A stretch of 64,000 bases of DNA. Source: Vulcanimicrobiota bacterium (GTDB lineage: Bacteria; Vulcanimicrobiota; Xenobia; Xenobiales; JADMJV01). Shown piece after piece: positions 2,710-51,537 of this stretch. The position numbers and the translations under genes were made by a program. The stretch covers positions 129,312 through 193,311 of the forward strand of contig JAHBVR010000005.1 in assembly GCA_019637395.1 (NCBI GenBank), given 5' to 3'. Numbering within the stretch: the first letter of the stretch is position 1; each line of letters begins with the position of its first letter. The notes beneath the pieces were generated by a model. That model searched no databases, had not been told where the DNA came from, and was given only the letters and a program-made list of their open reading frames with translations.

Positions 2710-3507
2710 ATGTTAGCCTTGACGACGGAGTTTCCCGGACATTTTCAGGGAAATTTATTTGCGGCTCGTTTAAATAACAACGTGACCAAACTCCAGGCTC
2801 CTGCCGGCCCTCAGATACCCAAGACCACTCTGCGCAGTGCCGCTCCACCTTCCGAATCGGAAACTCCACCGCCCGCCGACGGCGACAGCCTCGAACTTGG
2901 AGTCCACAAAACCGTTTCCCAGCACCTGGGCAACGCCGGCTTTGGAATCAGCTCGGTGGCCGCCTTCGGAGACGGACTTAACGCGCTGATGAATACTGCC
3001 GCCCAAATTCCCGGGTCCGAACTGGTTCCTGGTTTGAACGTGGGCGTGGCGGCGGTGGAGGGTTACAACTCCATCAAAAAGCTGCGCGAGCACGAGCCTA
3101 TCGTGGCGGCCACCTCGGCCGGCAACGCCCTGGGCACCATGGGGACCTTCCTGGGTCAGGTGGCTGCCGGCCACGCCCTGGTGGGTTGGCAGGTGGGCAG
3201 CAGCACGGCCGTGCTGGGCGTGGGCGCCGGCTTCGGAGTGCTGGCCGGCAGCCTGGGTATCGCCGCCGGCGTGGCCGAAATCAAGAAGGGTCACGAAACC
3301 CACAGCGCTCGAACCAGCGCCATGGGTTGCCTGGATATCAGTTCGGGCGTGGTCTCGCTGACCGGCGCCGCCGCGATGGCCGGCGGGGCCGCTCCTCTGG
3401 GAGTCGGTTTATTGATGCTGGCCAACCTGGTTGACCTGGCCGGCATTGGGGTTGACTATCTATGGAAAAAATGGACCCGCCCGAAGCAGACACACGTGGA
3501 TTACTGA
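2710..3507 (+). CDS. Gly/Ala-rich hydrophobic protein with Pro-rich leader, unknown function
   Basis: A 265-residue protein I do not recognise. From the ATG at 2710 the first 24 residues are unlike the rest. A GTG at 2782 would give a start reading MTKLQAPAGPQIPK, which fits the leader style of other genes here and leaves about 78 bases for a promoter (TTGACG at 2719-2724); I prefer it, though its ribosome binding site is weak. The leader contains LRSAAPP, also present at the N-terminus of the convergent SecA-like protein. Residues about 90-255 form long Gly/Ala/Val-rich amphipathic or membrane stretches with small-residue spacing, ending in a basic WKKWTRPK tail. There is no Sec signal peptide. 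It resembles in composition the protein at 34014-35063. The 3' end overlaps the SecA-like gene by 7 bases. Confidence 0.6.
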   Translation: MLALTTEFPGHFQGNLFAARLNNNVTKLQAPAGPQIPKTTLRSAAPPSESETPPPADGDSLELGVHKTVSQHLGNAGFGISSVAAFGDGLNALMNTAAQIPGSELVPGLNVGVAAVEGYNSIKKLREHEPIVAATSAGNALGTMGTFLGQVAAGHALVGWQVGSSTAVLGVGAGFGVLAGSLGIAAGVAEIKKGHETHSARTSAMGCLDISSGVVSLTGAAAMAGGAAPLGVGLLMLANLVDLAGIGVDYLWKKWTRPKQTHVDY

Positions 3508-5999
3508 GGCGGGGGCGGAGCCATCGGGCGAGCCGAGAGGAATCCGTGCAAAGTACGCGCGGCCACGCCGTCGAGCATCGACTCAAAGGCTTCGTGGGCC
3601 TTCTTCTCGTACATCTGCAGCGGGTTTTCTTCTTGCGAAGCCTCCCAGCGATTGCCTTCACGCAGTTCGTCTAGCCTGGAAATCTGCTCCATCCACTCTC
3701 GGTCCAGGGCGCGCAGGTAAACGGCCGAGAGAATTTGCGGCAGCACAGAGCCCATTTGCCTGCCCTGCTCAGACACCGCTTTCTCCAACTCGACTTTGAG
3801 CCAGCCTTTCTGGGTCGACGCTTCTATCGGGGGCTGCGGATAGCCCAACAGGTAATTGGCTTCCTGATTGCGCTTGGACGGATCCACGTCATTCATGCGA
3901 GACTCATAACGTTCGACCGCCTTGTCGATCCATTCGGGAAGTTCGTCCTTGAGTTCGATTCCGTCCAGAGCGGCGTCGCGGGCCGCGTAAACCAGCCCGC
4001 GTTGCTTATTCACCACTCCATCATACTTGAGGCTAAATTCGCGGAGCTCCAGGCTCTTGTCGTCGGCGTGCTGCTGGGCGCGGCGCACCATCTCCTCCGG
4101 CTCCAGCTTCGCCTTGGAGTCCAGGTGTAGGCGGAAAAGTTCATCTTCTTTACTCAGATAGAACTGGCTGGAGCCCGGGTCGCCTTGGCGACCGGCGCGG
4201 CCGGCCAGTTGCTCGTCGATGCGGCGCGCTTCGTGGCGCTCACTGCCGAGCACGGCCAGGCCACCGAGGGCAACCACCTGAGCCTTCTGGTTGGCGTCGG
4301 CACCCAGTTTGATATCGGTACCGCGACCGGCCATGTTGGTGGCTACCGTGACCGCTCCCAGATGGCCGGCCCTGGCGATAATATCGGCCTCGGCCGGGAT
4401 ATTCTTGGCGTTGAGCACCTGGTGAGGAATACCCCGCTCCTTGAGCATGCGCGAAAAGTCTTCGGAGCGCTCGATAGAGCGGGTTCCCAGCAAGACGGGC
4501 CGCCCTGACTTGTGGAGTCTGGCCACTTCATCGGCCAGCGCTCGATCGCGCTCTTTACCGGTATTGAACATCAGATCCGGCAGATCTTGACGAATCACAG
4601 GCTTGTGGGTAGGCACCGTCTGCACGTCAAGTCCATAGACCTGTCCAAATTCCTGGCGTGAGGACAGGCCCGTGCCCGTCATGCCGGCCAGTTTTCCATA
4701 CATGCGCAGGTAATTCGGATAGGTGATCGAGGCCATGGTCAGCATTCCGTCGCCCGGAACCAATCCTTCGGAGGCTTCAATGGCCTGGTGCAGCCCTTCG
4801 GAGAAACGATGACCCGGCTTGGGACGGCCGGTGAATTCGTCGATGAGGACGACTTCCTGGCCGGTGTTGAGGTAGTGTACGCCGGGCTGGAACAGAGCCC
4901 GCGCCTGCACGGCCGACTGCAAATAGGAAACGAGTTCTTCGTTCTTGGCGCTGTAGAGGTCGCCCAGGCCCAAGATTTTTTCGACTCGGTCCAGGCCTTC
5001 TTCGGTCAGCCAGGCCTGACGGGTCTTCTTGTCCGACTGAAAATCCACGCCTTCCTTCAGATGTTTGACCACGGTGGCCATGACGCGGGCGGGCTTGGGG
5101 TCCTCGGGCAGGTTGGAGGAAATCACCAGCGGTGTGTTGGCTTCATCCAGCAGCACCTTGTCGGCCTCGTCCACCAGCGCGAAGACCTTCGAAAGATCGC
5201 GGCTGACGCGCTGGTCGGGATTTTGGGTAAGGTGGTCCTCCAGGTATTGGAAGCCGAACTCCGAGGCGGTGCCGTAGACCACGTCGCATTGGTTGGCCGC
5301 CTGGCGCTGACCGTCGGGAAGGTCTCGGGAAACCACGCTGCTGCTCAAGCCCAGCCGGATGAAGACCGGCTCCAGCGTATCGCGGTCGCGTTGCGCCAGA
5401 TAGTCGTTGGCCGTGATGATATGCACCCCATCACCGCTCAGGGCGTGCAAATAGGCGGGCATAACCTCCATCAGGGTCTTGCCCTCGCCCGTCTTCATCT
5501 CCACGATGCAGCCCTGATGGGCCAGGGCGGCGCCCAGCACCTGCTTGTCATTGGCGCTCAGCCCGGTGGCGCGGCGCGCCGTTTCACGGGCCACCGCATA
5601 GGCTTCGACCAGCAGGTCGTCCAATGAGGCTCCGGCTTTCAGGCGCTGGCGGAACTCCTGAGTTTTGGCCTTGAGTTGCTCGTCACTGAAGGCCTGTATG
5701 GAAGTGCCCAGCGCCAAAACGTCTCGGGCTGCTCGTTGGGCTTTCTCAAGCTGGGAAGTGCGGCCGCTTAACCAATCGACCAGGCTGCCGCCCAGACCGG
5801 TCAGCTTGCCCAGCGTTTGGCTGAGGGTGCTGACCAGCCCCTGAGTCGGTGAGGCTTGCGTGATCGCCGGAAAGGCAGGCGCGGAGGTCACCGTGGGAAC
5901 GGTGCCTCCGTAACCATCTGCTGGCTTCGAAGGAGCCGCCGCCTGTTTGACGGGCGGCGGGGCCGCCGAGCGCAACCGACTCTGCGGATTGATTTTCAA
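3501..5999 (-). CDS. secA: SecA-like preprotein translocase ATPase, divergent (SecA2-type?)
   Basis: An 832-residue SecA-family DEAD motor. It has the Walker A-type motif MKTGEGKTL (about 168-176), the nucleotide-domain motif VDEADKVLLDEANTPL, the second motor block TDIKLGADAN, and GRAGRQGDPGSSQFYLS with Arg fingers. The C-terminal scaffold is present but altered (LDREWMEQISRLDELREG). Two features set it apart from housekeeping SecA: about 75 extra N-terminal residues, disordered and Pro/Ala/Ser-rich, and no C-terminal zinc motif, the protein ending in APPPPQ instead. The start is TTG 5999, with AAGGA 7 bases upstream. It lies 10 bases after the surface-type gene 6010-6594, so the two form an operon, suggesting an accessory SecA dedicated to that substrate. 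It could instead be the only SecA of a divergent lineage; the window cannot tell. Confidence 0.85.
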   Translation of the reverse strand: MKINPQSRLRSAAPPPVKQAAAPSKPADGYGGTVPTVTSAPAFPAITQASPTQGLVSTLSQTLGKLTGLGGSLVDWLSGRTSQLEKAQRAARDVLALGTSIQAFSDEQLKAKTQEFRQRLKAGASLDDLLVEAYAVARETARRATGLSANDKQVLGAALAHQGCIVEMKTGEGKTLMEVMPAYLHALSGDGVHIITANDYLAQRDRDTLEPVFIRLGLSSSVVSRDLPDGQRQAANQCDVVYGTASEFGFQYLEDHLTQNPDQRVSRDLSKVFALVDEADKVLLDEANTPLVISSNLPEDPKPARVMATVVKHLKEGVDFQSDKKTRQAWLTEEGLDRVEKILGLGDLYSAKNEELVSYLQSAVQARALFQPGVHYLNTGQEVVLIDEFTGRPKPGHRFSEGLHQAIEASEGLVPGDGMLTMASITYPNYLRMYGKLAGMTGTGLSSRQEFGQVYGLDVQTVPTHKPVIRQDLPDLMFNTGKERDRALADEVARLHKSGRPVLLGTRSIERSEDFSRMLKERGIPHQVLNAKNIPAEADIIARAGHLGAVTVATNMAGRGTDIKLGADANQKAQVVALGGLAVLGSERHEARRIDEQLAGRAGRQGDPGSSQFYLSKEDELFRLHLDSKAKLEPEEMVRRAQQHADDKSLELREFSLKYDGVVNKQRGLVYAARDAALDGIELKDELPEWIDKAVERYESRMNDVDPSKRNQEANYLLGYPQPPIEASTQKGWLKVELEKAVSEQGRQMGSVLPQILSAVYLRALDREWMEQISRLDELREGNRWEASQEENPLQMYEKKAHEAFESMLDGVAARTLHGFLSARPMAPPPPQ

Positions 6000-6009
6000 G
6001 AAGAGATCC

Positions 6010-6594
6010 TTACCAGGTGCGGCACTGGTAGTGATCGGTGGAGACGTACCAGCCGCCCTGCGAGTTGGGACAGATCAGTCTTCCATAGTTATCGTAGAAG
6101 GGCTGCTGCACCTGCTGCGGATATTGCGGGTACTGGGGCTGGGTGGGCGGATAGTAGACGGGCGGGGGAGCCTGGTTGGCGATGGCGCCGCCGATGATGG
6201 CTCCGAGAATGACGCCGCCGATAACGGCCCCGGCGTTGTTGCCACCGCCGCGATGGTGGCGATGATTGTAGCCGTGGTTGTAACCGCCGCGGGGGCCATA
6301 GCCGCCGTTGCGATAGCGAGTTTGGGCCTGGGCGCTGCCGGCGCCGAACAGACTGACGGCGGCCGTGGCCAGGCCGGTGGCGGCCAGAACGGCTTTGCTG
6401 GTGCCGGAGAGGCCGGTTTTGACCTCCTTGGACTCGGCGGCGGGGGCGTTTTCCTCGGCGCGAGCTTCGATGGTGCTCAGGTCCGGCAAAGAATCAAGGG
6501 GAGATTGAGGAGCTTCGGCCGGCGCGGCGGCGGGCTTGCCGGCCGGAAGCGAAGTCGTCCGAAGGGTGGGCTGGGAGTTAAGGGCGCTCAACAT
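6010..6594 (-). CDS. Putative exported glycine-zipper protein with long pre-signal leader
   Basis: A 194-residue protein in operon with the SecA-like gene. The start is ATG 6594, preceded by GGAGGT about 11 bases away; the longer upstream frame lacks this. The architecture is odd. About 60 residues of Pro/Ala/Ser-rich leader (LNSQPTLRTTSLPAGKPAAAP near the start) precede a signal-peptide-like hydrophobic stretch (KAVLAATGLATAAVSLFG) that ends in a signal-peptidase-like AQAQ site. Beyond that come a Gly/Tyr/His/Arg-rich region, a glycine-zipper-like helix (VIGGVILGAIIGGAIA), a Pro/Tyr/Gln-rich linker and a conserved-looking tail with two cysteines (NYGRLICPNSQGGWYVST). I infer an envelope or surface protein. 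The long pre-signal leader recalls the extended signals of SecA2 substrates, but no known substrate family is recognised. Confidence 0.7.
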   Translation of the reverse strand: MLSALNSQPTLRTTSLPAGKPAAAPAEAPQSPLDSLPDLSTIEARAEENAPAAESKEVKTGLSGTSKAVLAATGLATAAVSLFGAGSAQAQTRYRNGGYGPRGGYNHGYNHRHHRGGGNNAGAVIGGVILGAIIGGAIANQAPPPVYYPPTQPQYPQYPQQVQQPFYDNYGRLICPNSQGGWYVSTDHYQCRTW

Positions 6595-6702
6595 AACTGC
6601 GTGTGACCTCCAAACAGGTTCTATGTGTGTATGCTGGCAGTTTAGTCTCAGGAGCGAAAAAAGAGCTGAAGAACTTGTGAACAAACAGACGGGGGTGGAT
6701 GT

Positions 6703-9394: not shown

Positions 9395-9544
9395 GGAAAT
9401 CTCTTTTCCTCAGCGGGCAGGCGCTCCTTGCCAAGAGGGAAAATGTCACAGACGGTCAACATCAATGCTGTCACATTGAGGTGGTCTAGGATGCCCGAAA
9501 AAGGCTCAGGACTTCCCAGAATGTGATGCTTGGAGGACGTGACG

Positions 9545-12500
9545 GTGTCGGGTGCGCTACAAATGGAAGCTAATGCCGCTTTTGAGCAGGGCGACTGGGA
9601 TCAAGCCATTGAGGGCTATACCAAGGCTTTAGAAGCCGATCCGAACGATGCCGAGTCCTGCCGTCGCCTGGCCGATACTCGGGCCATTCGCGGCAACCTC
9701 AACCTGGTTGTCGATACCTACCTTCAGTTGATGGATATCCTGTGCGCCCAGAGCAATTATCAAGCCGCGCTCCAGGTGGCTGACTGGGTCAAGTGCATCA
9801 AGCCCGAGTCCGACGCGGTCCGCGCCAAGACCGTCGATATTTATATCAAGCTGGGCGACATGGCCAAAGTCGTGCAGCACTCTATGGAATTGGCCCGTCT
9901 CTACATCGAACTGGGACAGGGCGAAAGCGCTATCTCTCTGCTTATCGAGGCTCAGAAGGCCGATCCGGGCAATCTGGAAATCGGTCTGGAGCTGGCCGAG
10001 ACCTACGTCAGTCAGGGACATATGCAAGAAGGCGCCAAGCAGTACCGGCATATGGGTCACGTGCTGGTCGATCAGGGAAATCTGGAACGCGCCTCGGAAG
10101 CCTTCCGCCGCCTCAAATTGATCGCTCCGGACGATGCCGGCATTTTGCTTACGCTGGGCAATATTTACGTGGAGCTCAAGCGCTACAATGAAGCCGAGCA
10201 GGAATATCGTTCCATCCTGCGCCACAACCTCAATCACGAGGAAGCTCTGTTGGCGCTGGGTCGCGTCTGTCAGCTCAAGTGTCAATGGCGCGACGCCATC
10301 CTCGCCTTCAATCGAATCCTCAACATTAACCCTGGCGAAGTCACGGCCAAAGAGCGCCTGGGTGAGCTCTATCAGCAGCAGAGTCTCATTCAGGACGCCA
10401 TCAAGTACTATTTGTTGGCCGCTCAGGCCTATTTTGAAATCGAAGAGCGCGATCGCGCCATTCGCCTCTATCAGATCGTGTTGGGCCTGGATCCCTCTCA
10501 TCCTACGGCTGTCCGGGAACTGACCAATCTCGAAGCACCGCTGGTGGGCATTCGCAACGAAGCCATCGAGCCTCCCACGCCGCGCCCCGAGAAGGTTTCC
10601 GCTAGCGAGGCGCCGGCTGCGGGTGCGCGTGAAGGTGGCTCTCTGGCTGCCGGTCTGGTGGCCAGAGGGGAAGAGGGCGGCGGTGGCGGCCGCAGCGGTA
10701 TGCTGCGGCGTACGGCCGGTGCGGCCAAGACTCCCGGTAAAGCTCCTTTGGCCGGCAAACCCAAGCTGGGTGAAGGCAAGCCGCAACTCGGCGGCGGTGG
10801 CGCTACCAAACAAGGGCTTTTCCGTTCGGGTGCGGGCGGAGGCGGTGATAAACCGATGCTCAGTCGCCGTGGTGCTAAAAAGGTCGAAGATACCATTGAA
10901 GACTCGGTGGGAGCGTCTTCCAATGAAATGGTCATGCCGGCCGCTCCCCAGCGGTCCATGATGGCTCCTTCGGGTGGGGAGGGACTGGGTTCTCCGCCTG
11001 ATGACGCCGCCTTTGCCCCCGCGGGCGGCCACGACCCCTTCGCCGCCGCCGGTAGCCACGATCCTTTTGCCTCGGCCCACACGGTGGATCCGTTCGCCGC
11101 TGCGGAGAGCGGCGGCTTCGGCGTGGCCGCAGACCCCTTTGCTGGCGAGGGAGATCCTTTTGCTGCGGCTGACCCCTTCGCGGTCGGCAACGATCCCTTC
11201 GCCGCTGCTGGGGATCCCTTCGCCGCTGCTGGGGATCCCTTCGCCGCTGCCGGCGATCCCTTCGCCCCCGGCAACGATCCTTTCGCTGCCCAGGCCGCGC
11301 CAGTCGATCCTTTTGCCGCTCAGGCGGACCCTTTCGCCAACGCGGCGGATCCCTTCGCGAGCGCCCCAGCGGCGGGTGATCCCTTCGCCGGCCAGTCCGC
11401 TCATGATCCCTTTGCGGCGAGTTCCGCGGACCCATTCGCGGCGCCCGCCGAGCCGTTCGCTGTTCAGGCGGACCCTTTCGCTTCCGCGGGCCAAGACCCG
11501 TTTGCAGCCCCTGCTCACGACCCGTTTGCGGCTCCGGCGCACGACCCGTTCGGAGCTGCGGCCTCCGACTCGTTGGCCGCTTCGGCCCAAAACCCGTTCG
11601 GCACACCGGCCGCGTCTCCGGCCAATCACGATCCGTTCGCTGCCTCGGCCGACCCTTTTGGATCTCCAGCGGCAGATCCATTCGCAGTCCCGGCTGCTGA
11701 CCCGTTTGGCGCTCCCGCCCAGGACCCTTTTGCTGCCCCTGCGGACCCGTTCGCTGCGACCGCCGACCCCTTTGCGGCTCCGGCCGCCGATTCGTTTGCC
11801 GCCCCCGCTCAGGACCCGTTCGCCGCAACCAACGACCCGTTCGGGGCCCCGGCCAGCGACCCGTTTGCGGCTCCGGCTGCCGACCCGTTCGGCGCCCCCG
11901 CCCAGGACCCGTTCGCCGCGACCAGCGACCCGTTTGCGGCTCCGGCTGCCGACCCGTTCGGCGCCCCTGCCCAGGACCCGTTCGCCGCGACCAGCGACCC
12001 GTTTGCGGCTCCGGCTGCCGACCCGTTCGGCGCCCCCGCTCAGGATCCGTTCGCCGCGAGCACCGACCCGTTTGCGGCTCCGGCTGCCGACCCGTTCGGC
12101 GCCCCCGCTCAGGATCCGTTCGCCACGACCGCCGACCCGTTTGCGGCTCCGGCCGTGGACCCATTCGGCGCCCCCGCTCAGGACCCGTTTGCCGCGACCA
12201 GCGACCCGTTTGGTGCCCCGGCCAACGACCCGTTTGCGTCTCCGGCTGCGGACCCGTTTGCCGCGACCGCCGACCCGTTTGCGGCCCCGGCTGCGGACCC
12301 GTTTGCCGCGACCGCCGACCCGTTTGCGGCTCCGGCTGCGGACCCGTTCGCCGCGACCGCCGACCCGTTTGCGGCTCCGGCTGCCGACCCATTCGGCGCC
12401 CCCGCTCAGGATCCGTTCGCCACGACCGCTGACCCGTTTGCGGCTCCGGCTGCGGACCCGTTTGCCGCTCCAACTGTTGACCCGTTCGCCGCGACCGCCG

Positions 12501-15500
12501 ATCCCTTTGCAGCGCCGGCAGCCGATCCGTTTGGCGCCCCCGCCCAGGACCCGTTCGCGGCCCCGGCTGCGGACCCGTTTGCCGCGACTGCCGATCCCTT
12601 TGCAGCGCCGGCCGCCGACCCGTTCGGCGCCCCCGCCCAGGACCCGTTCGCGGCCCCGGCTGCGGACCCGTTTGCCGCGACTGCCGATCCCTTTGCGGCC
12701 CCGGCCGCCGATCCGTTCGCAGCCACCTCTGACCCGTTCGCGGCTCCTCCCGCGGCGGCGGTCGATCCCTTTGCCGCCCCTGCCGGGGACCCGTTTGCGG
12801 CTCCGGCTGCCGACCCGTTCGCCGCTCCGCCTCAATCCGACCCCTTTGGCGCTTCCGGCGAGCCTTTCAGCTCTGCCGTCTCTGACCCGTTCGCCTCGGC
12901 TCCCGATCCGTTTGGCACCAGTCCCGAATCCTATGCCGCCGCTCCCGCTCAGGATCCTTTCGCTGCGCCGCCCGCCAGCGATCCATTTGCCTCCTCTCCG
13001 GTCCAGGACCCGTTTGCCGTGGCCGCGCCCAGTCTGTCACTGCCCGGCGATCCGTTCAGCGCTCCGCCGACCCTGGAACCGCCTCCCAGCGCGGAGCCAT
13101 TCTCGGCGGCCAGCCTCCAGGTCGGCGATCCCTTTGCCGCCCCGGTGGCGGCGGCTCCACTGGACCCGTTCGGCGCCCCCCCGGCCCTCGACCCCTTCGC
13201 CGCTCCGGTCGCCCTCGATCCGTTTGCTTCTACTCTGTCAGCCCCGCCCCAACTGGAGCCGATAGCTGAGCCCGTGAGTGCCGGATTGCAGGCTCCGCCC
13301 GCCTTCGACCCTTTCGCTCCCACCATGGAGGCTCAGCCGCTACTGGCCCCACCGCCCGACCTCGGGCCGCCTCCTTCGCTGGAGTTGTTCTCAGCTCCGC
13401 CGGCGGAAGCCGCTCCCTCCTTGGAAGAGTCTCCCTTCGCCCTGAGGGTGGAGGCTCCGCTGGCTCCGCCGGCTTTTGATTCGGGCGAAGCTCCCTCGCT
13501 GAACCTGGGAGCGCCCGAAGCCGATCGCGGCGGCGCCCCGGTCGAATCGACCTTCGGTGCCTCGCCTTCGCACTTCTTTGATAAACTCAAGCAGGGCGCC
13601 CAGGCCGAGGCCTCACCCCCCGCCGCTGGTGGGGGAGCTGATTCACTGGCCGAGCGGATTGCTCGTCGTAATAAGTCCAAACAAGAGGAGATCGAAGTCC
13701 CCGGCGATCTGCCCATCCTGGAGCTCCCTCCCTTACAGGCTGACCTGCAGCCGCTCCCGCCACCTCCGGCGGCGGCCTGGGAGGAGCCGGTGGTGGCGCC
13801 CGTGGCCTTCGCTCCGGTCATCGAGGCCAGCAGCGAGCCTATCGCGTCGGAACGGACTCATTTCGAGCCGGTACCGGCCGAGCCGCCCGCTTTCCAGGAG
13901 TCCATGCAGCTCGAGACCCCGCCCGTGGTCGAGCCGGAGCCCGAACCCGAGCCCGAGCCCGAGCCGGAACCCGAGCCCGAGCCGCTGCCTCCGGAGCCGA
14001 TTTTCGGCCGCCCGCGTAGCAGCTTCTCGGTCGAGTCGGAAGTTTCGGGGGACCAGGTGCAGCAGGCTCGCGAAGTCCGCGAGAAGAACGAAGGAGCGGA
14101 CGTGGCCTCCTTGATTCGGGCTTATCGGCGCTCCATCGAGGAGAATCCGGACAACCTGTTGCTGCGCACCAACCTGGCTGACCTGCATCTCAACTACGGA
14201 CTGCTGGAAGACGCGGTGGTGCAATACCGTCAGATCATCAAGCGCAATCCCAACAGCGTAGGTCTGCACCACCGCCTGATTCAGGCCCACCTGTGGAACG
14301 ATAATTACGAAGAGGCCGCGGCCACTCTGATGGAGCTTTCCCAGTTGCATGTCAGCCGGGGAGAACTACAGGATGCGCTCGACGGTATGCAGACGGTGCT
14401 CAGTCTGGATCCTCACCACTTCCAGGCGCGCCGCCAGTTGGTCGACCTGTGTTCGGCCCAGGGCGAAGCGCGCCTGGCCACCCATCACCTGCGTCAACTG
14501 GCCGAAGCCGCCCTCACTAAGGGCAGCGTAGAGGAGGCCATCGAGGCCTTCTCCCGCCTTATGGAAATCAGCGACGATCCCAGCTTCCAGGACCGCCTGG
14601 CTCAAGTCTACGAGAGTCAGGGCCGCACCGAGGAAGCGCTTCACCACTATCGCCAACTGGTAGAACGTTATTGGCAGGCCGAGAAGTGGGAAGAAGCCGC
14701 CTCGGCCACCGAGCGCATCGTCACCTTGATGCCGGAAGACTTGACGGTGCGGCGCAGCCTCACCGAACTCTATCAGCGTCTCGGCCTGACCGAACGCGTG
14801 TTGGAGCAGCGTTACCAGTTGGGTTGTCACTACTTCAGCGTGGGCGATGTCAACGCCGCCGCCGAGTTGCTCGAGCAAGTCCTGCATGAGCAGCCGAGCC
14901 ACAACCAGGCCCGCCGCGTTCTGCTGGACGTCTACCTGGCTCAGGGACGGATCGAGGAGGCTCTGAAGCAGTCGGAGTCGCTGACGGCCCACTACATTCA
15001 GGAAAAAGACCACCAGAACGCCATCGATCTCTACCTGAAGCTGGTCGAAGCCCAGCCCGAAAACGCCGAGTTGCGCAAGAACCTCATTCGTTTCTACGAG
15101 ATGGCCGAGGATTCCGAGCAGGCGTCCGAGCAATGGCTGGCTCTGGCTCAGCTTTACTCTCGCTTCGAATCCTGGGAAGAATCCGTGGGTGCCTATCAGA
15201 AGGTGTTGGAGCTGGACGAGAATCGCTCCGAGATCCACTACCAGTTGGCCCGCATCTACCTGGAGAAGCTGGGCGACCCGGCTCAGGCTCTGCAAGAGTT
15301 CCACCGCGTTTATGAACTCGATCCGGGCAATACCCAGGCGATGGGCAAGTACATCCGCATCCTGTTGCGCCTGAGCAAAGCCGACAGCGCCGCCGAAGTG
15401 TTGCGCCGCCTGGCTGAAGTCAACCCGGATGCGGCCGAAGTCAAGGATTCGGTGATGAAGGACTTCAAAGGCCGTATCGAGAGTGAGCCGGGCGATCTGC

Positions 15501-15904
15501 GCGCCCGCTTCGTCTTCGGTGAACTCTCCTACCACCTGGGCGAGCTGGACCTGGCCATCGAGCAGTTTCAGCAGACTCGCCGCGATCGGGCCTTCGAACT
15601 CAAGTCCTACAACATGCTGGGGCAATGCTTCGCCGAAAAGCACGGTTTCAACATGCTCGACCTGGCCATCCGCCAGTTCCGCCGCGGTCTGGAGACCCCC
15701 GGTTTCTCTGAACAAGAGTACCTGGAGCTACGCTATAACCTGGCCATGCTGCAGTACAAGAACAACCGTCTGCAAGAAGCCCTGCAGGAGCTCAAAGACT
15801 GCTACGCGGTGGACATCGCCTACCGCGACGTGCGCGAATGGATTCGTCGTATCGAGAACGAGATCGCCGGTGGGCCCAAGGTCAACCGCGGACCGCAGAA
15901 GTAA
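9545..15904 (+). CDS. Giant TPR protein with about 80 DPF motifs in a disordered centre
   Basis: About 2,119 residues. I start it at GTG 9545, eight bases after GGAGG, rather than at the upstream TTG (9530), which lies at the ribosome site itself. Three parts are visible. Residues about 1-330 are TPR repeats (W/Y-x2-A-x3-Y style helices such as GDWDQAIEGYTKALEADPN). Residues about 360-1500 are disordered: a Gly/Lys-rich linker, then about 80 copies of DPF in contexts such as DPFAAPA and DPFGAPAQ, then Pro/Glu-rich sequence with an EP dipeptide run. Residues about 1510-2119 are a second TPR solenoid. No signal peptide is seen, so it is probably cytoplasmic. It lies 17 bases upstream of another giant TPR gene. 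Inference: a scaffold in which two TPR arrays are joined by a multivalent linker. Confidence 0.9.
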   Translation: MSGALQMEANAAFEQGDWDQAIEGYTKALEADPNDAESCRRLADTRAIRGNLNLVVDTYLQLMDILCAQSNYQAALQVADWVKCIKPESDAVRAKTVDIYIKLGDMAKVVQHSMELARLYIELGQGESAISLLIEAQKADPGNLEIGLELAETYVSQGHMQEGAKQYRHMGHVLVDQGNLERASEAFRRLKLIAPDDAGILLTLGNIYVELKRYNEAEQEYRSILRHNLNHEEALLALGRVCQLKCQWRDAILAFNRILNINPGEVTAKERLGELYQQQSLIQDAIKYYLLAAQAYFEIEERDRAIRLYQIVLGLDPSHPTAVRELTNLEAPLVGIRNEAIEPPTPRPEKVSASEAPAAGAREGGSLAAGLVARGEEGGGGGRSGMLRRTAGAAKTPGKAPLAGKPKLGEGKPQLGGGGATKQGLFRSGAGGGGDKPMLSRRGAKKVEDTIEDSVGASSNEMVMPAAPQRSMMAPSGGEGLGSPPDDAAFAPAGGHDPFAAAGSHDPFASAHTVDPFAAAESGGFGVAADPFAGEGDPFAAADPFAVGNDPFAAAGDPFAAAGDPFAAAGDPFAPGNDPFAAQAAPVDPFAAQADPFANAADPFASAPAAGDPFAGQSAHDPFAASSADPFAAPAEPFAVQADPFASAGQDPFAAPAHDPFAAPAHDPFGAAASDSLAASAQNPFGTPAASPANHDPFAASADPFGSPAADPFAVPAADPFGAPAQDPFAAPADPFAATADPFAAPAADSFAAPAQDPFAATNDPFGAPASDPFAAPAADPFGAPAQDPFAATSDPFAAPAADPFGAPAQDPFAATSDPFAAPAADPFGAPAQDPFAASTDPFAAPAADPFGAPAQDPFATTADPFAAPAVDPFGAPAQDPFAATSDPFGAPANDPFASPAADPFAATADPFAAPAADPFAATADPFAAPAADPFAATADPFAAPAADPFGAPAQDPFATTADPFAAPAADPFAAPTVDPFAATADPFAAPAADPFGAPAQDPFAAPAADPFAATADPFAAPAADPFGAPAQDPFAAPAADPFAATADPFAAPAADPFAATSDPFAAPPAAAVDPFAAPAGDPFAAPAADPFAAPPQSDPFGASGEPFSSAVSDPFASAPDPFGTSPESYAAAPAQDPFAAPPASDPFASSPVQDPFAVAAPSLSLPGDPFSAPPTLEPPPSAEPFSAASLQVGDPFAAPVAAAPLDPFGAPPALDPFAAPVALDPFASTLSAPPQLEPIAEPVSAGLQAPPAFDPFAPTMEAQPLLAPPPDLGPPPSLELFSAPPAEAAPSLEESPFALRVEAPLAPPAFDSGEAPSLNLGAPEADRGGAPVESTFGASPSHFFDKLKQGAQAEASPPAAGGGADSLAERIARRNKSKQEEIEVPGDLPILELPPLQADLQPLPPPPAAAWEEPVVAPVAFAPVIEASSEPIASERTHFEPVPAEPPAFQESMQLETPPVVEPEPEPEPEPEPEPEPEPLPPEPIFGRPRSSFSVESEVSGDQVQQAREVREKNEGADVASLIRAYRRSIEENPDNLLLRTNLADLHLNYGLLEDAVVQYRQIIKRNPNSVGLHHRLIQAHLWNDNYEEAAATLMELSQLHVSRGELQDALDGMQTVLSLDPHHFQARRQLVDLCSAQGEARLATHHLRQLAEAALTKGSVEEAIEAFSRLMEISDDPSFQDRLAQVYESQGRTEEALHHYRQLVERYWQAEKWEEAASATERIVTLMPEDLTVRRSLTELYQRLGLTERVLEQRYQLGCHYFSVGDVNAAAELLEQVLHEQPSHNQARRVLLDVYLAQGRIEEALKQSESLTAHYIQEKDHQNAIDLYLKLVEAQPENAELRKNLIRFYEMAEDSEQASEQWLALAQLYSRFESWEESVGAYQKVLELDENRSEIHYQLARIYLEKLGDPAQALQEFHRVYELDPGNTQAMGKYIRILLRLSKADSAAEVLRRLAEVNPDAAEVKDSVMKDFKGRIESEPGDLRARFVFGELSYHLGELDLAIEQFQQTRRDRAFELKSYNMLGQCFAEKHGFNMLDLAIRQFRRGLETPGFSEQEYLELRYNLAMLQYKNNRLQEALQELKDCYAVDIAYRDVREWIRRIENEIAGGPKVNRGPQK
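11030..13325 (+). repeat. Tandem DPF-encoding repeat tract inside the giant TPR gene
   Basis: About 2.3 kb of imperfect tandem repeats encoding DPFAAPA, DPFGAPAQ and DPFAAT units (roughly 7-14 residues, 21-42 bases). The unit around 11,880-12,130 (ADPFGAPAQDPFAAT-S followed by DPFAAP) is almost identical from copy to copy, which indicates recent expansion. The strong codon bias opens very long frames on the opposite strand and in other plus frames; these are by-products of the repeat. Confidence 0.93.
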
Positions 15905-49845: not shown

Positions 49846-51537
49846 GTGCTCTTTACCCACCTCGGACGCAAACGTGCGCTCATCCACCTGAGCCTCACGC
49901 TCAGCTTGTTGCTGCTGGCCTTGAGCGCCTGGGCCTTGGCCAGGGCTTTTCGCCTCCACCAATCCACTGACATTCAAAGCCTGGAGGGCTCCTCCGCCGA
50001 CTTCTTACATCAGCTCTGCCCGGGTTCCCACCTGGAGGTGGTGCAGGAATTCCCGCTGCACCTGGTCGTTACCGCCGATACCGATCCGGCCACCCTGGAA
50101 CAGTTGAAGCCGGCTTTGACCTATTTCTACAACCTCGAGGAGTCCCGAGGGGAGCAATTGCTGGTTGTACCTGGGCAAGCGCCATTCTACTGGGTAGACC
50201 ATGGCCTTCTGGCCGTGGCCATCACCCTGGCCGGGTTGCTGCTGACATTGCCCGGGCTTATCTATCTTCTACCGCGACGCCGGATCCAAGTCGAACGTCC
50301 GGTGCTGAGCAAAGTGATTCTCACCTTGACTCTGGCCGCCACGGTCTCCTTCGGCCTGGTCCGGCACGGCCGGCCACAGCCGAGTTTAGCTCGCTGGCTG
50401 GAAGACGATCTGGGCGGGCTGACCAACAACCGTTCGGTGGTGGTGGCGGTGCTCGAACGCGACGGGCGGATCCGTGCTTTGGCCGCGGCTGATCCAGGTC
50501 TGCATCCGCTCATCCAGGTGCGGGCCAAAACCCTGGGTCTTGACTCTATCTTGTGCCTGGCTCCGAGCAGTCGTCAGGTCCGGCTCTGGCCCTGGGCGGG
50601 CCTGGCTCTACTGGTGCTGCCGGCGGGAGCCTGTTGGTCCCGAAGAGCCCGGCGGGCAGCGCCGCTGACCCCGGTAAAGATCAGGCCGGCTCCTCCGATT
50701 CGTGATTCGCTGCGCGTTGAAGAATTACAGATAGATATCGGACGAGGGCTTTTGGGCCTGATCGATCCTGACCAGGGCGCCGAATTGCTGGAACGCCTGT
50801 CCTCGATGCGCCGCCACATAGCCCTGGAACTGGGTGTGCTCGTTCCCCACCTGCACTTTCGCGACCAGTTCGGCATCAAGCCTAACCGTTATCAGATCTA
50901 TGTTCGGGGAACCGAGGTGGCCAGCGGGGAAGTTTGGGTCAATCAATTCCTGGCAATCGGGCCTGAGTACAAACTGAAAAACATGCGCGGCACCAGAGTC
51001 GTCGACCCGACCTGCGGTATGCCGGGTGTCTGGATCTCACCCGAGCAACGCGGTGACGCCGAGCGTCTCGGCTGTATGCTCTTTGACTCCGTTTCGGTGA
51101 TGGCTACCCATATCAACGAAACAATTCGCCGTTTCAGCGCCGATTTGCTCACTTTTCAGATGGCCAACGAGCGGTTGGAGAACTCCAACTTGAGCGTCGT
51201 GCTGGCGCAACTGGACGGGCGCGGAATCAACCGCATCCGTCTCTGGAAGACGCTGCGCGCACTACTCCAAGAACGGGTCAGCATCCGAGACTTGCAGTGT
51301 ATCTGTGAGGGCTTGCTGGCCGTGTCTCACCTGGGCCTGGATGATGAAGGTCTGCTGGATTACGCTCGCCGTGCCCTCGGGAAATATAAGAACAACGAAG
51401 ATTTGCAACACGATGTCTTGGCTGGCCAAAGCCTGGAAGAAGAGACTCGACGATTGGAGCAGTCTGCCGCGAGAATCGAAGCTCGCCGCCAGCGGATTCG
51501 CCGCCGGCGGGCGCTGCTTCTCGAGCGGGGCGAATAG
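49846..51537 (+). CDS. Orphan FlhA/SctV-type export-gate cytoplasmic domain on a novel membrane module
   Basis: 563 residues from GTG 49846, with AGGAGG 5 bases upstream. Residues about 287-520 match the FlhA/SctV (type III export gate) cytoplasmic domain in order: LLGLIDPDQGAELLERLSSMRR, ALELGVLVPHLHFRDQ, PNRYQIYVRGTEVASGE, LAIGPEYKLKNMRG, VVDPTCGMPGVWI, SVMATHINETIRRFSADLLTFQ and ERVSIRDLQCICEGLLAV. The N-terminus differs from FlhA: only about three or four membrane helices (near 8-30, 120-143, 150-168 and 243-260) with two soluble loops, and no eight-helix FHIPEP domain. The C-terminus is a basic coiled coil. Followed 44 bases on by a giant coiled-coil gene. In T3SS the domain forms a nonameric ring that receives chaperone-substrate complexes. 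The homology is clear; the function without a T3SS in view is unknown. Confidence 0.85.
   Translation: MLFTHLGRKRALIHLSLTLSLLLLALSAWALARAFRLHQSTDIQSLEGSSADFLHQLCPGSHLEVVQEFPLHLVVTADTDPATLEQLKPALTYFYNLEESRGEQLLVVPGQAPFYWVDHGLLAVAITLAGLLLTLPGLIYLLPRRRIQVERPVLSKVILTLTLAATVSFGLVRHGRPQPSLARWLEDDLGGLTNNRSVVVAVLERDGRIRALAAADPGLHPLIQVRAKTLGLDSILCLAPSSRQVRLWPWAGLALLVLPAGACWSRRARRAAPLTPVKIRPAPPIRDSLRVEELQIDIGRGLLGLIDPDQGAELLERLSSMRRHIALELGVLVPHLHFRDQFGIKPNRYQIYVRGTEVASGEVWVNQFLAIGPEYKLKNMRGTRVVDPTCGMPGVWISPEQRGDAERLGCMLFDSVSVMATHINETIRRFSADLLTFQMANERLENSNLSVVLAQLDGRGINRIRLWKTLRALLQERVSIRDLQCICEGLLAVSHLGLDDEGLLDYARRALGKYKNNEDLQHDVLAGQSLEEETRRLEQSAARIEARRQRIRRRRALLLERGE

What the first reader, a model, noticed from the sequence alone, without database searches (positions are those of the whole stretch)
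3501..6594. Operon of a SecA-like ATPase with a disordered N-terminal extension and a surface-type protein with a 60-residue pre-signal leader
The genes are 10 bases apart on one strand. The SecA lacks the C-terminal zinc motif and has about 75 extra N-terminal residues. The partner protein carries a leader before its Sec-like hydrophobic stretch (SLFGAGSAQAQ), as extended SecA2-substrate signals do. Both, and the convergent protein at 2710-3507, carry similar leader motifs (LRSAAPP in two, LRTTSLP in the third). This looks like an accessory Sec system with its dedicated substrate, outside the known SecA2 families.
Basis: partly seen in the sequence, partly recalled or inferred. Interest (0 to 1): 0.78.

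Follow-up and report, generated by a model that had tools for sequence, protein, structure and literature searches.

The report
Accessory SecA with long-signal partner protein
An uncultured bacterium with two membranes carries a spare copy of the protein-export motor SecA in a two-gene operon with one small envelope protein that has an unusually long export signal; the pairing recurs in its relatives, and the two probably form a private export route of a kind so far studied mainly in Gram-positive bacteria.

Summary
Window 3501-5999 (-) encodes a SecA with an intact motor, no zinc tail and a 78-residue N-terminal extension. Ten bases upstream, 6010-6594 (-) encodes a 194-residue protein with a 67-residue hydrophilic leader before a Sec-like signal ending in A-x-A. 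The genome has a canonical SecA, a third SecA (~1,180 aa) and only one SecY, so this SecA is accessory. It forms a strongly supported clade apart from the known SecA2 proteins sampled and fails the cut-offs of all four SecA2 families in NCBIfam. The pair recurs in six genomes across two families. The leader is translated, under purifying selection and carries a conserved LP[DN]-x(6)-R motif, and all nine relatives keep A-x-A. In a 1.29-Mb survey no other gene combined such a leader with a credible cleavable signal. In the related genome G005, each of four accessory SecAs lies next to, or one gene from, a long-leader protein. Best reading: a lineage-specific accessory SecA that sends a dedicated substrate through the housekeeping SecYEG. 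The claimed shared 'LRSAAPP' motif is weak and not conserved, and the SecA's own extension evolves almost freely. Dependence of export on this SecA is untested.

The parts
3501..5999 (-). Accessory SecA ('SecA2'), 832 aa, TTG start; motor, cross-linking, wing and scaffold domains; no SEC-C zinc tail
   Evidence: Pfam SecA_DEAD 2e-93, P-loop_SecA, SecA_PP_bind, SecA_SW; below every NCBIfam SecA and SecA2 cut-off; Walker-A MKTGEGKT and QLAGRAGRQGD present; model matches B. subtilis SecA Z 41.3 and C. difficile SecA2 Z 40.4
5766..5999 (-). N-terminal extension of the SecA (residues 1-78), Pro/Ala/Ser-rich, probably disordered
   Evidence: No SecA homology; pLDDT under 50 at residues 1-78, with no alignment depth there; dN/dS 0.21-0.82 against 0.07-0.16 for the body
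6007..6011 (-). AAGGA ribosome site of the SecA, overlapping the partner's TAA stop (translational coupling, inferred)
   Evidence: TGGTAAGGA conserved in G000 and G001, near-identical in G003 and G004
6010..6594 (-). Partner: 194-aa exported/envelope-type protein, probable substrate
   Evidence: no Pfam or NCBIfam family reaches its cut-off
6394..6594 (-). Hydrophilic leader of the partner (residues 1-67)
   Evidence: dN/dS 0.16-0.26, conserved start context; conserved across two families
6460..6489 (-). Leader motif LPDLSTIEAR (residues 36-45), LP[DN]-x(6)-R in 8 of 9 relatives
   Evidence: absent in the G017 relative
6325..6393 (-). Sec-like hydrophobic core and signal-peptidase-I-type site SAQA|Q (residues 68-90)
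   Evidence: A-x-A after the core in 9 of 9 relatives
6013..6324 (-). Mature part: His/Gly/Tyr-rich stretch, glycine zipper AGAVIGGVILGAIIGGAIA, Pro/Tyr-rich stretch, C-terminal two-Cys segment
   Evidence: Read from sequence; conserved in congeners, C-terminal segment in G005, G006 and G017
6607..6611 (-). GGAGG ribosome site of the partner
   Evidence: Conserved in four congeners
2710..3507 (+). Convergent 265-aa protein with Gly/Ala-rich hydrophobic stretches; stop overlaps the SecA stop by 7 bases; probably not part of the system
   Evidence: Next to the SecA in G000, G001 and G003, elsewhere in G004, absent from G005 and G006

Best explanation
The SecA is an accessory motor that arose by ancient duplication of SecA within this phylum and is used with the housekeeping SecYEG, the only SecY found. 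Its main client is the neighbouring envelope protein, made just before it from the same operon. The client is marked by a bipartite signal: a disordered leader of about 67 residues with an LP[DN]-x(6)-R motif, then an ordinary Sec signal peptide. The leader probably binds the accessory SecA (or a chaperone) and keeps the client off the canonical SecA/SRP route; signal peptidase I then removes leader and signal together, releasing a small His/Gly-rich, glycine-zipper protein into the envelope. Shown: gene pair, accessory status, separate clade, translated and constrained leader, conserved A-x-A, single SecY, recurrence of the pair. Inferred: SecA-leader binding, use of SecYEG, dependence of export, cleavage, location of the product.
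For: Three SecAs and one SecY in a 97.9% complete genome; the C36 SecA is canonical, passes the secA equivalog cut-offs and has SEC-C. Orthologous SecAs at 73-88% in three congeners and about 55% in G005 and G006. Partner adjacent on the same strand in G000, G001, G003, G004 and G006, and divergent 114 bp away in G005. The partner family occurs in 6 of 8 genomes with this SecA clade and 1 of 50 without (Fisher p 5e-6, not corrected for relatedness). Clade support 99-100 SH-aLRT; joining it with C. difficile SecA2 rejected, AU p 0.017. Leader constrained although it precedes a conserved cleavage site and so is absent from the mature protein, hence probably acts before cleavage. Profile of leader plus signal finds no second hit in the whole own genome at E up to 1. 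In G005 the other accessory SecAs lie by further long-leader proteins: a 1,412-aa protein 100 bp downstream of the C283 SecA, a 318-aa protein 51 bp downstream of the C106 SecA, and a 644-aa protein one gene away from the C23 SecA.
Against: No biochemical or genetic evidence. Two deeper-branching members of the SecA clade (G026, G033) have no partner homologue, and G017 has the partner without this SecA. The core and A-x-A alone would make an adequate Sec signal, so canonical SecA might export it. The SecA's own extension is weakly constrained. Hydrophilic leaders starting M-x-I also occur on unrelated proteins of the lineage, some without a signal, so the first ~25 residues may not be specific to this system. 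The G005 comparison was made after seeing the cases, with loosened filters.
Confidence: 0.6

Rival explanations
1. The small protein is not a client but a membrane-anchored cofactor of the accessory SecA: the leader stays in the cytosol as a docking tail, the hydrophobic segment is an anchor, and the SecA exports other, unlinked substrates.
For: Tight 1:1 linkage and translational coupling fit a complex subunit; a second glycine-zipper hydrophobic stretch follows.
Against: A-x-A directly after the core in all nine relatives; the mature part diverges strongly between families (27-30% identity) and unlinked paralogues exist in G003 and G004; in G005 other long-leader proteins of quite different mature sequence sit by other SecAs, as expected of clients.
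Confidence: 0.2
2. The leader is a lineage-wide N-terminal element (for example a type III-like export or localisation signal) unrelated to the SecA; co-location reflects conserved neighbourhood only.
For: M-x-I hydrophilic leaders occur on unrelated proteins; the genome has two full-length FHIPEP export gates and many shorter FHIPEP matches; weak leader similarity with the SecA and the convergent protein.
Against: In the survey, long leader plus cleavable signal is confined to this gene; the profile finds no other in the whole own genome; a Sec signal with A-x-A is not a type III feature; the adjacency persists over family-level divergence while most other neighbours change.
Confidence: 0.15
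3. Housekeeping redundancy: the second SecA is a diverged duplicate with overlapping function and the partner is an ordinary Sec substrate with a tolerated long n-region.
For: Intact catalytic motifs and near-canonical fold; canonical SecA also present.
Against: Long retention across families as a distinct clade; zinc tail lost; two-helix-finger Tyr changed to Ser in the genus while kept in G005 and G006; leader under purifying selection.
Confidence: 0.05

Closest known systems
Accessory Sec (SecA2/SecY2/Asp) of streptococci and staphylococci with serine-rich-repeat adhesins such as GspB
   Same: A second SecA encoded with a dedicated substrate that has a very long signal peptide (GspB: 90 residues, PMC3297441)
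   Different: No SecY2, no Asp or Gtf genes seen beside it, small non-SRR substrate, diderm host, separate SecA clade, below TIGR03714 cut-off
SecA2-only systems (C. difficile, Listeria, Bacillus, mycobacteria)
   Same: Second SecA without C-terminal tail; one SecY; slightly shortened wing region (own reading; compare PMC7503281)
   Different: Not within those families by cut-off or tree; a linked partner with an extended bipartite signal; Lpt-bearing lineage
Extended signal peptides of autotransporters and YSIRK/GS signals
   Same: Conserved extension in front of a normal Sec signal that affects targeting (YSIRK/GS: PMC3297441; autotransporter extension: own knowledge and PMC5796085)
   Different: Those use the canonical SecA (own knowledge); the extension here is longer (~67 residues), different in motif and linked to its own SecA

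Membership tests
SecA superfamily | SecA motor, preprotein cross-linking, wing and scaffold domains | tested here: met
   Pfam hits, invariant motifs, fold match
Housekeeping SecA | Passes NCBIfam secA equivalog cut-offs | tested here: not met
   752.5 against 814 and 725.1 against 800; the genome's other SecA passes with 1158.6 and 1064.4
Housekeeping SecA | C-terminal zinc (SEC-C) tail | tested here: not met
   Absent in P0001, present in the C36 SecA
Streptococcal accessory Sec (SecA2/SecY2) | TIGR03714 cut-off | tested here: not met
   655.7 against 930
Streptococcal accessory Sec (SecA2/SecY2) | Dedicated SecY2 | tested here: not met
   One SecY in the genome, 97.9% complete
Streptococcal accessory Sec (SecA2/SecY2) | Substrate with an unusually long signal peptide encoded in the locus | tested here: met
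   function as a signal not tested
SecA2-only systems | NCBIfam cut-offs NF012136, TIGR04221, TIGR04397 | tested here: not met
   524/1100, 517/725, 663/1085
SecA2-only systems | Groups with known SecA2 proteins in a tree | tested here: not met
   Separate clade; AU p 0.017 against joining C. difficile SecA2; the actinobacterial and aSec rows are long branches and less certain; Listeria and B. anthracis SecA2 were not in the tree
SecA2-only systems | Second SecA beside a canonical SecA, without C-terminal tail | tested here: met
Accessory SecA (functional sense) | Required for export of specific substrates | not testable with these tools
   Needs genetics

The most novel reading that the evidence does not exclude
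This lineage runs several parallel Sec routes, each accessory SecA paired with its own long-leader preprotein, forming a leader-to-motor code on one shared SecYEG. G005 carries four accessory SecAs, each next to or one gene from a different long-leader protein (318, 644, 1,412 and about 200 aa).
Probability: 0.3. Interest if true: 0.8.

Novelty: new variant of a known kind. Interest (0 to 1): 0.62.

Why it matters
Accessory SecA systems are known mainly from Gram-positive bacteria and mycobacteria, and how a second SecA picks its clients on a shared SecYEG is still unclear. Here the putative client lies in the same operon, its leader is short, conserved and separable from an ordinary signal, and the pair recurs in diderm relatives, so the selection rule can be tested by leader swaps.

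Tried and rejected
Misassigned start of the partner: rejected by conserved ATG context, lack of alternative in-frame starts in three congeners and selection on the leader. A shared targeting motif in three genes: weak and not conserved. Leader as a genome-wide substrate mark: no other own-genome hit. FHIPEP gene beside the third SecA as a conserved partner: found only in G000 among the SecA3 loci checked. Structure prediction used a shallow alignment (25 rows) without coverage of the extension, so low confidence there is not independent proof of disorder. Literature searches for a third SecA or accessory SecA in this lineage found nothing relevant, in an open-access library only.

Full report
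What is there. On the minus strand the window encodes a 194-aa protein (6010-6594) followed 10 bases later by an 832-aa SecA (3501-5999); a 265-aa protein (2710-3507, plus strand) converges on it with a 7-base overlap of the stops. The SecA has all motor, cross-linking, wing and scaffold domains, keeps the columns that are invariant in an alignment with 24 diverse SecAs, and its model matches SecA structures best (B. subtilis 3jv2 Z 41.3, C. difficile SecA2 6sxh Z 40.4). It lacks the SEC-C zinc tail and has 78 residues before the homology starts.

Accessory status. The genome (7.66 Mb, 97.9% complete) has three SecA genes and one SecY. The one at C36 lies beside a gene that reads as prfB, carries SEC-C and passes the housekeeping cut-offs. 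The one here and the third (~1,180 aa, C1) pass none of the SecA or SecA2 cut-offs. LptC and LptF/LptG genes beside the canonical SecA show a lipopolysaccharide-type diderm; the name of the lineage was not determined.

Phylogeny. The SecA here, its orthologues in G001, G003-G006 and two deeper relatives (G026, G033) form one clade (SH-aLRT 99-100); the ~1,000-1,300-aa SecAs form a second (100); both lie apart from the phylum's own canonical SecAs and from the known SecA2 proteins included. Joining the clade with C. difficile SecA2 is rejected (AU p 0.017). Branches of the streptococcal-type and actinobacterial SecA2 rows are long, so their exact places are uncertain, and Listeria and B. anthracis SecA2 were not included.

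The partner. Start ATG with GGAGG upstream in four species; leader dN/dS 0.16-0.26; no alternative in-frame start between codon 40 and the core in G000, G003 and G004. Across nine relatives the leader runs 54-73 residues to the last basic residue, eight of nine carry LP[DN]-x(6)-R, and all nine carry A-x-A after the core. The mature part varies: a His/Gly-rich stretch, usually a glycine zipper and a C-terminal Cys segment in the genus, and a DG-x(3)-HFD-x-YG-like segment in G005, G006 and G017. A leader that is conserved though it would be cleaved off most likely acts before cleavage, that is, in targeting (inference).

Specificity. At the strictest filter 3 of 1,092 genes in 1.29 Mb had a low-hydrophobicity leader and a later hydrophobic core; two were doubtful gene calls and the third is this gene. 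Looser filters passed 7 of 1,126 each; the others read as membrane segments, mispredicted starts or non-signals. A profile of leader plus signal finds no second copy in the whole own genome. The partner family is found in 7 of 58 relatives, in 6 of the 8 with this SecA clade. The pair is adjacent on one strand in G000, G001, G003, G004 and G006 and divergent, 114 bp apart, in G005.

Extension to other SecAs. G005 has three further accessory SecAs. A 1,412-aa protein lies 100 bp downstream of one, a 318-aa protein 51 bp downstream of another, and a 644-aa protein one gene away from the third; each has a long hydrophilic leader before a signal-like core ending in A-x-A. In 553 other G005 genes four passed a loose version of the filter, none of them a convincing long-leader signal on inspection. 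This was noticed after the fact and needs a planned survey. The third SecA in the window's own genome has no such neighbour.

What does not hold. The three-way leader motif is weak: shuffle p 0.010, 0.001 and 0.29 in the own genome and not significant for the same-genome pairs in relatives. The SecA's own extension evolves nearly freely (dN/dS 0.21-0.82 against 0.07-0.16 for the body), so it is probably a disordered tail rather than a conserved signal. The convergent gene is near the SecA in three species only.

Mechanism. The best reading is an accessory motor acting on the shared SecYEG with a leader-marked client, as the known SecA2 systems do in outline; GspB has a 90-residue signal and needs SecA2/SecY2 (PMC3297441), and C. 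difficile SecA2 lacks the C-terminal tail (PMC7503281). A change of note: in the four congeners the tyrosine at the tip of the two-helix finger (E. coli Tyr794 by own knowledge) is Ser, while G005 and G006 keep Tyr. Binding, dependence and cleavage remain to be shown.

Noticed in passing
Window 49846-51537 (+); whole own genome: Nineteen FHIPEP (FlhA/SctV) matches in one genome: two full-length and many covering only the cytosolic part, one of them in the window (match at residues 283-531 of a 563-aa protein). Striking expansion of free FlhA-like cytosolic domains.
   Followed up: partly
L006:6769-8328 (G000:C1): FHIPEP gene directly downstream of the third SecA, not found at the SecA3 loci checked in relatives.
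   Followed up: yes
L056, L057, L058 (G005): Three further accessory SecAs next to or one gene from long-leader preproteins of different mature sequence; the 318-aa one ends in Phe like an outer-membrane barrel.
   Followed up: partly
G003:C116, L047:1477-1845 (-): 122-aa protein with a hydrophilic leader before a lipoprotein-type signal and a glycine zipper, so the leader idea may extend to lipoproteins.
   Followed up: no
Window 9530-15904 (+): 2,124-aa TPR protein with a long low-complexity DPFAAPA repeat region.
   Followed up: no
Lineage-wide, e.g. L268:13586-14050, L305:5394-6698, G000:C32:187896-188498 and C32:289147-292137: Many unrelated proteins begin M-x-I followed by a hydrophilic Ala/Pro/Ser-rich stretch; purpose unknown.
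   Followed up: no
L061:222-4307 (G026): Canonical-clade SecA of 1,361 aa, much longer than usual.
   Followed up: no
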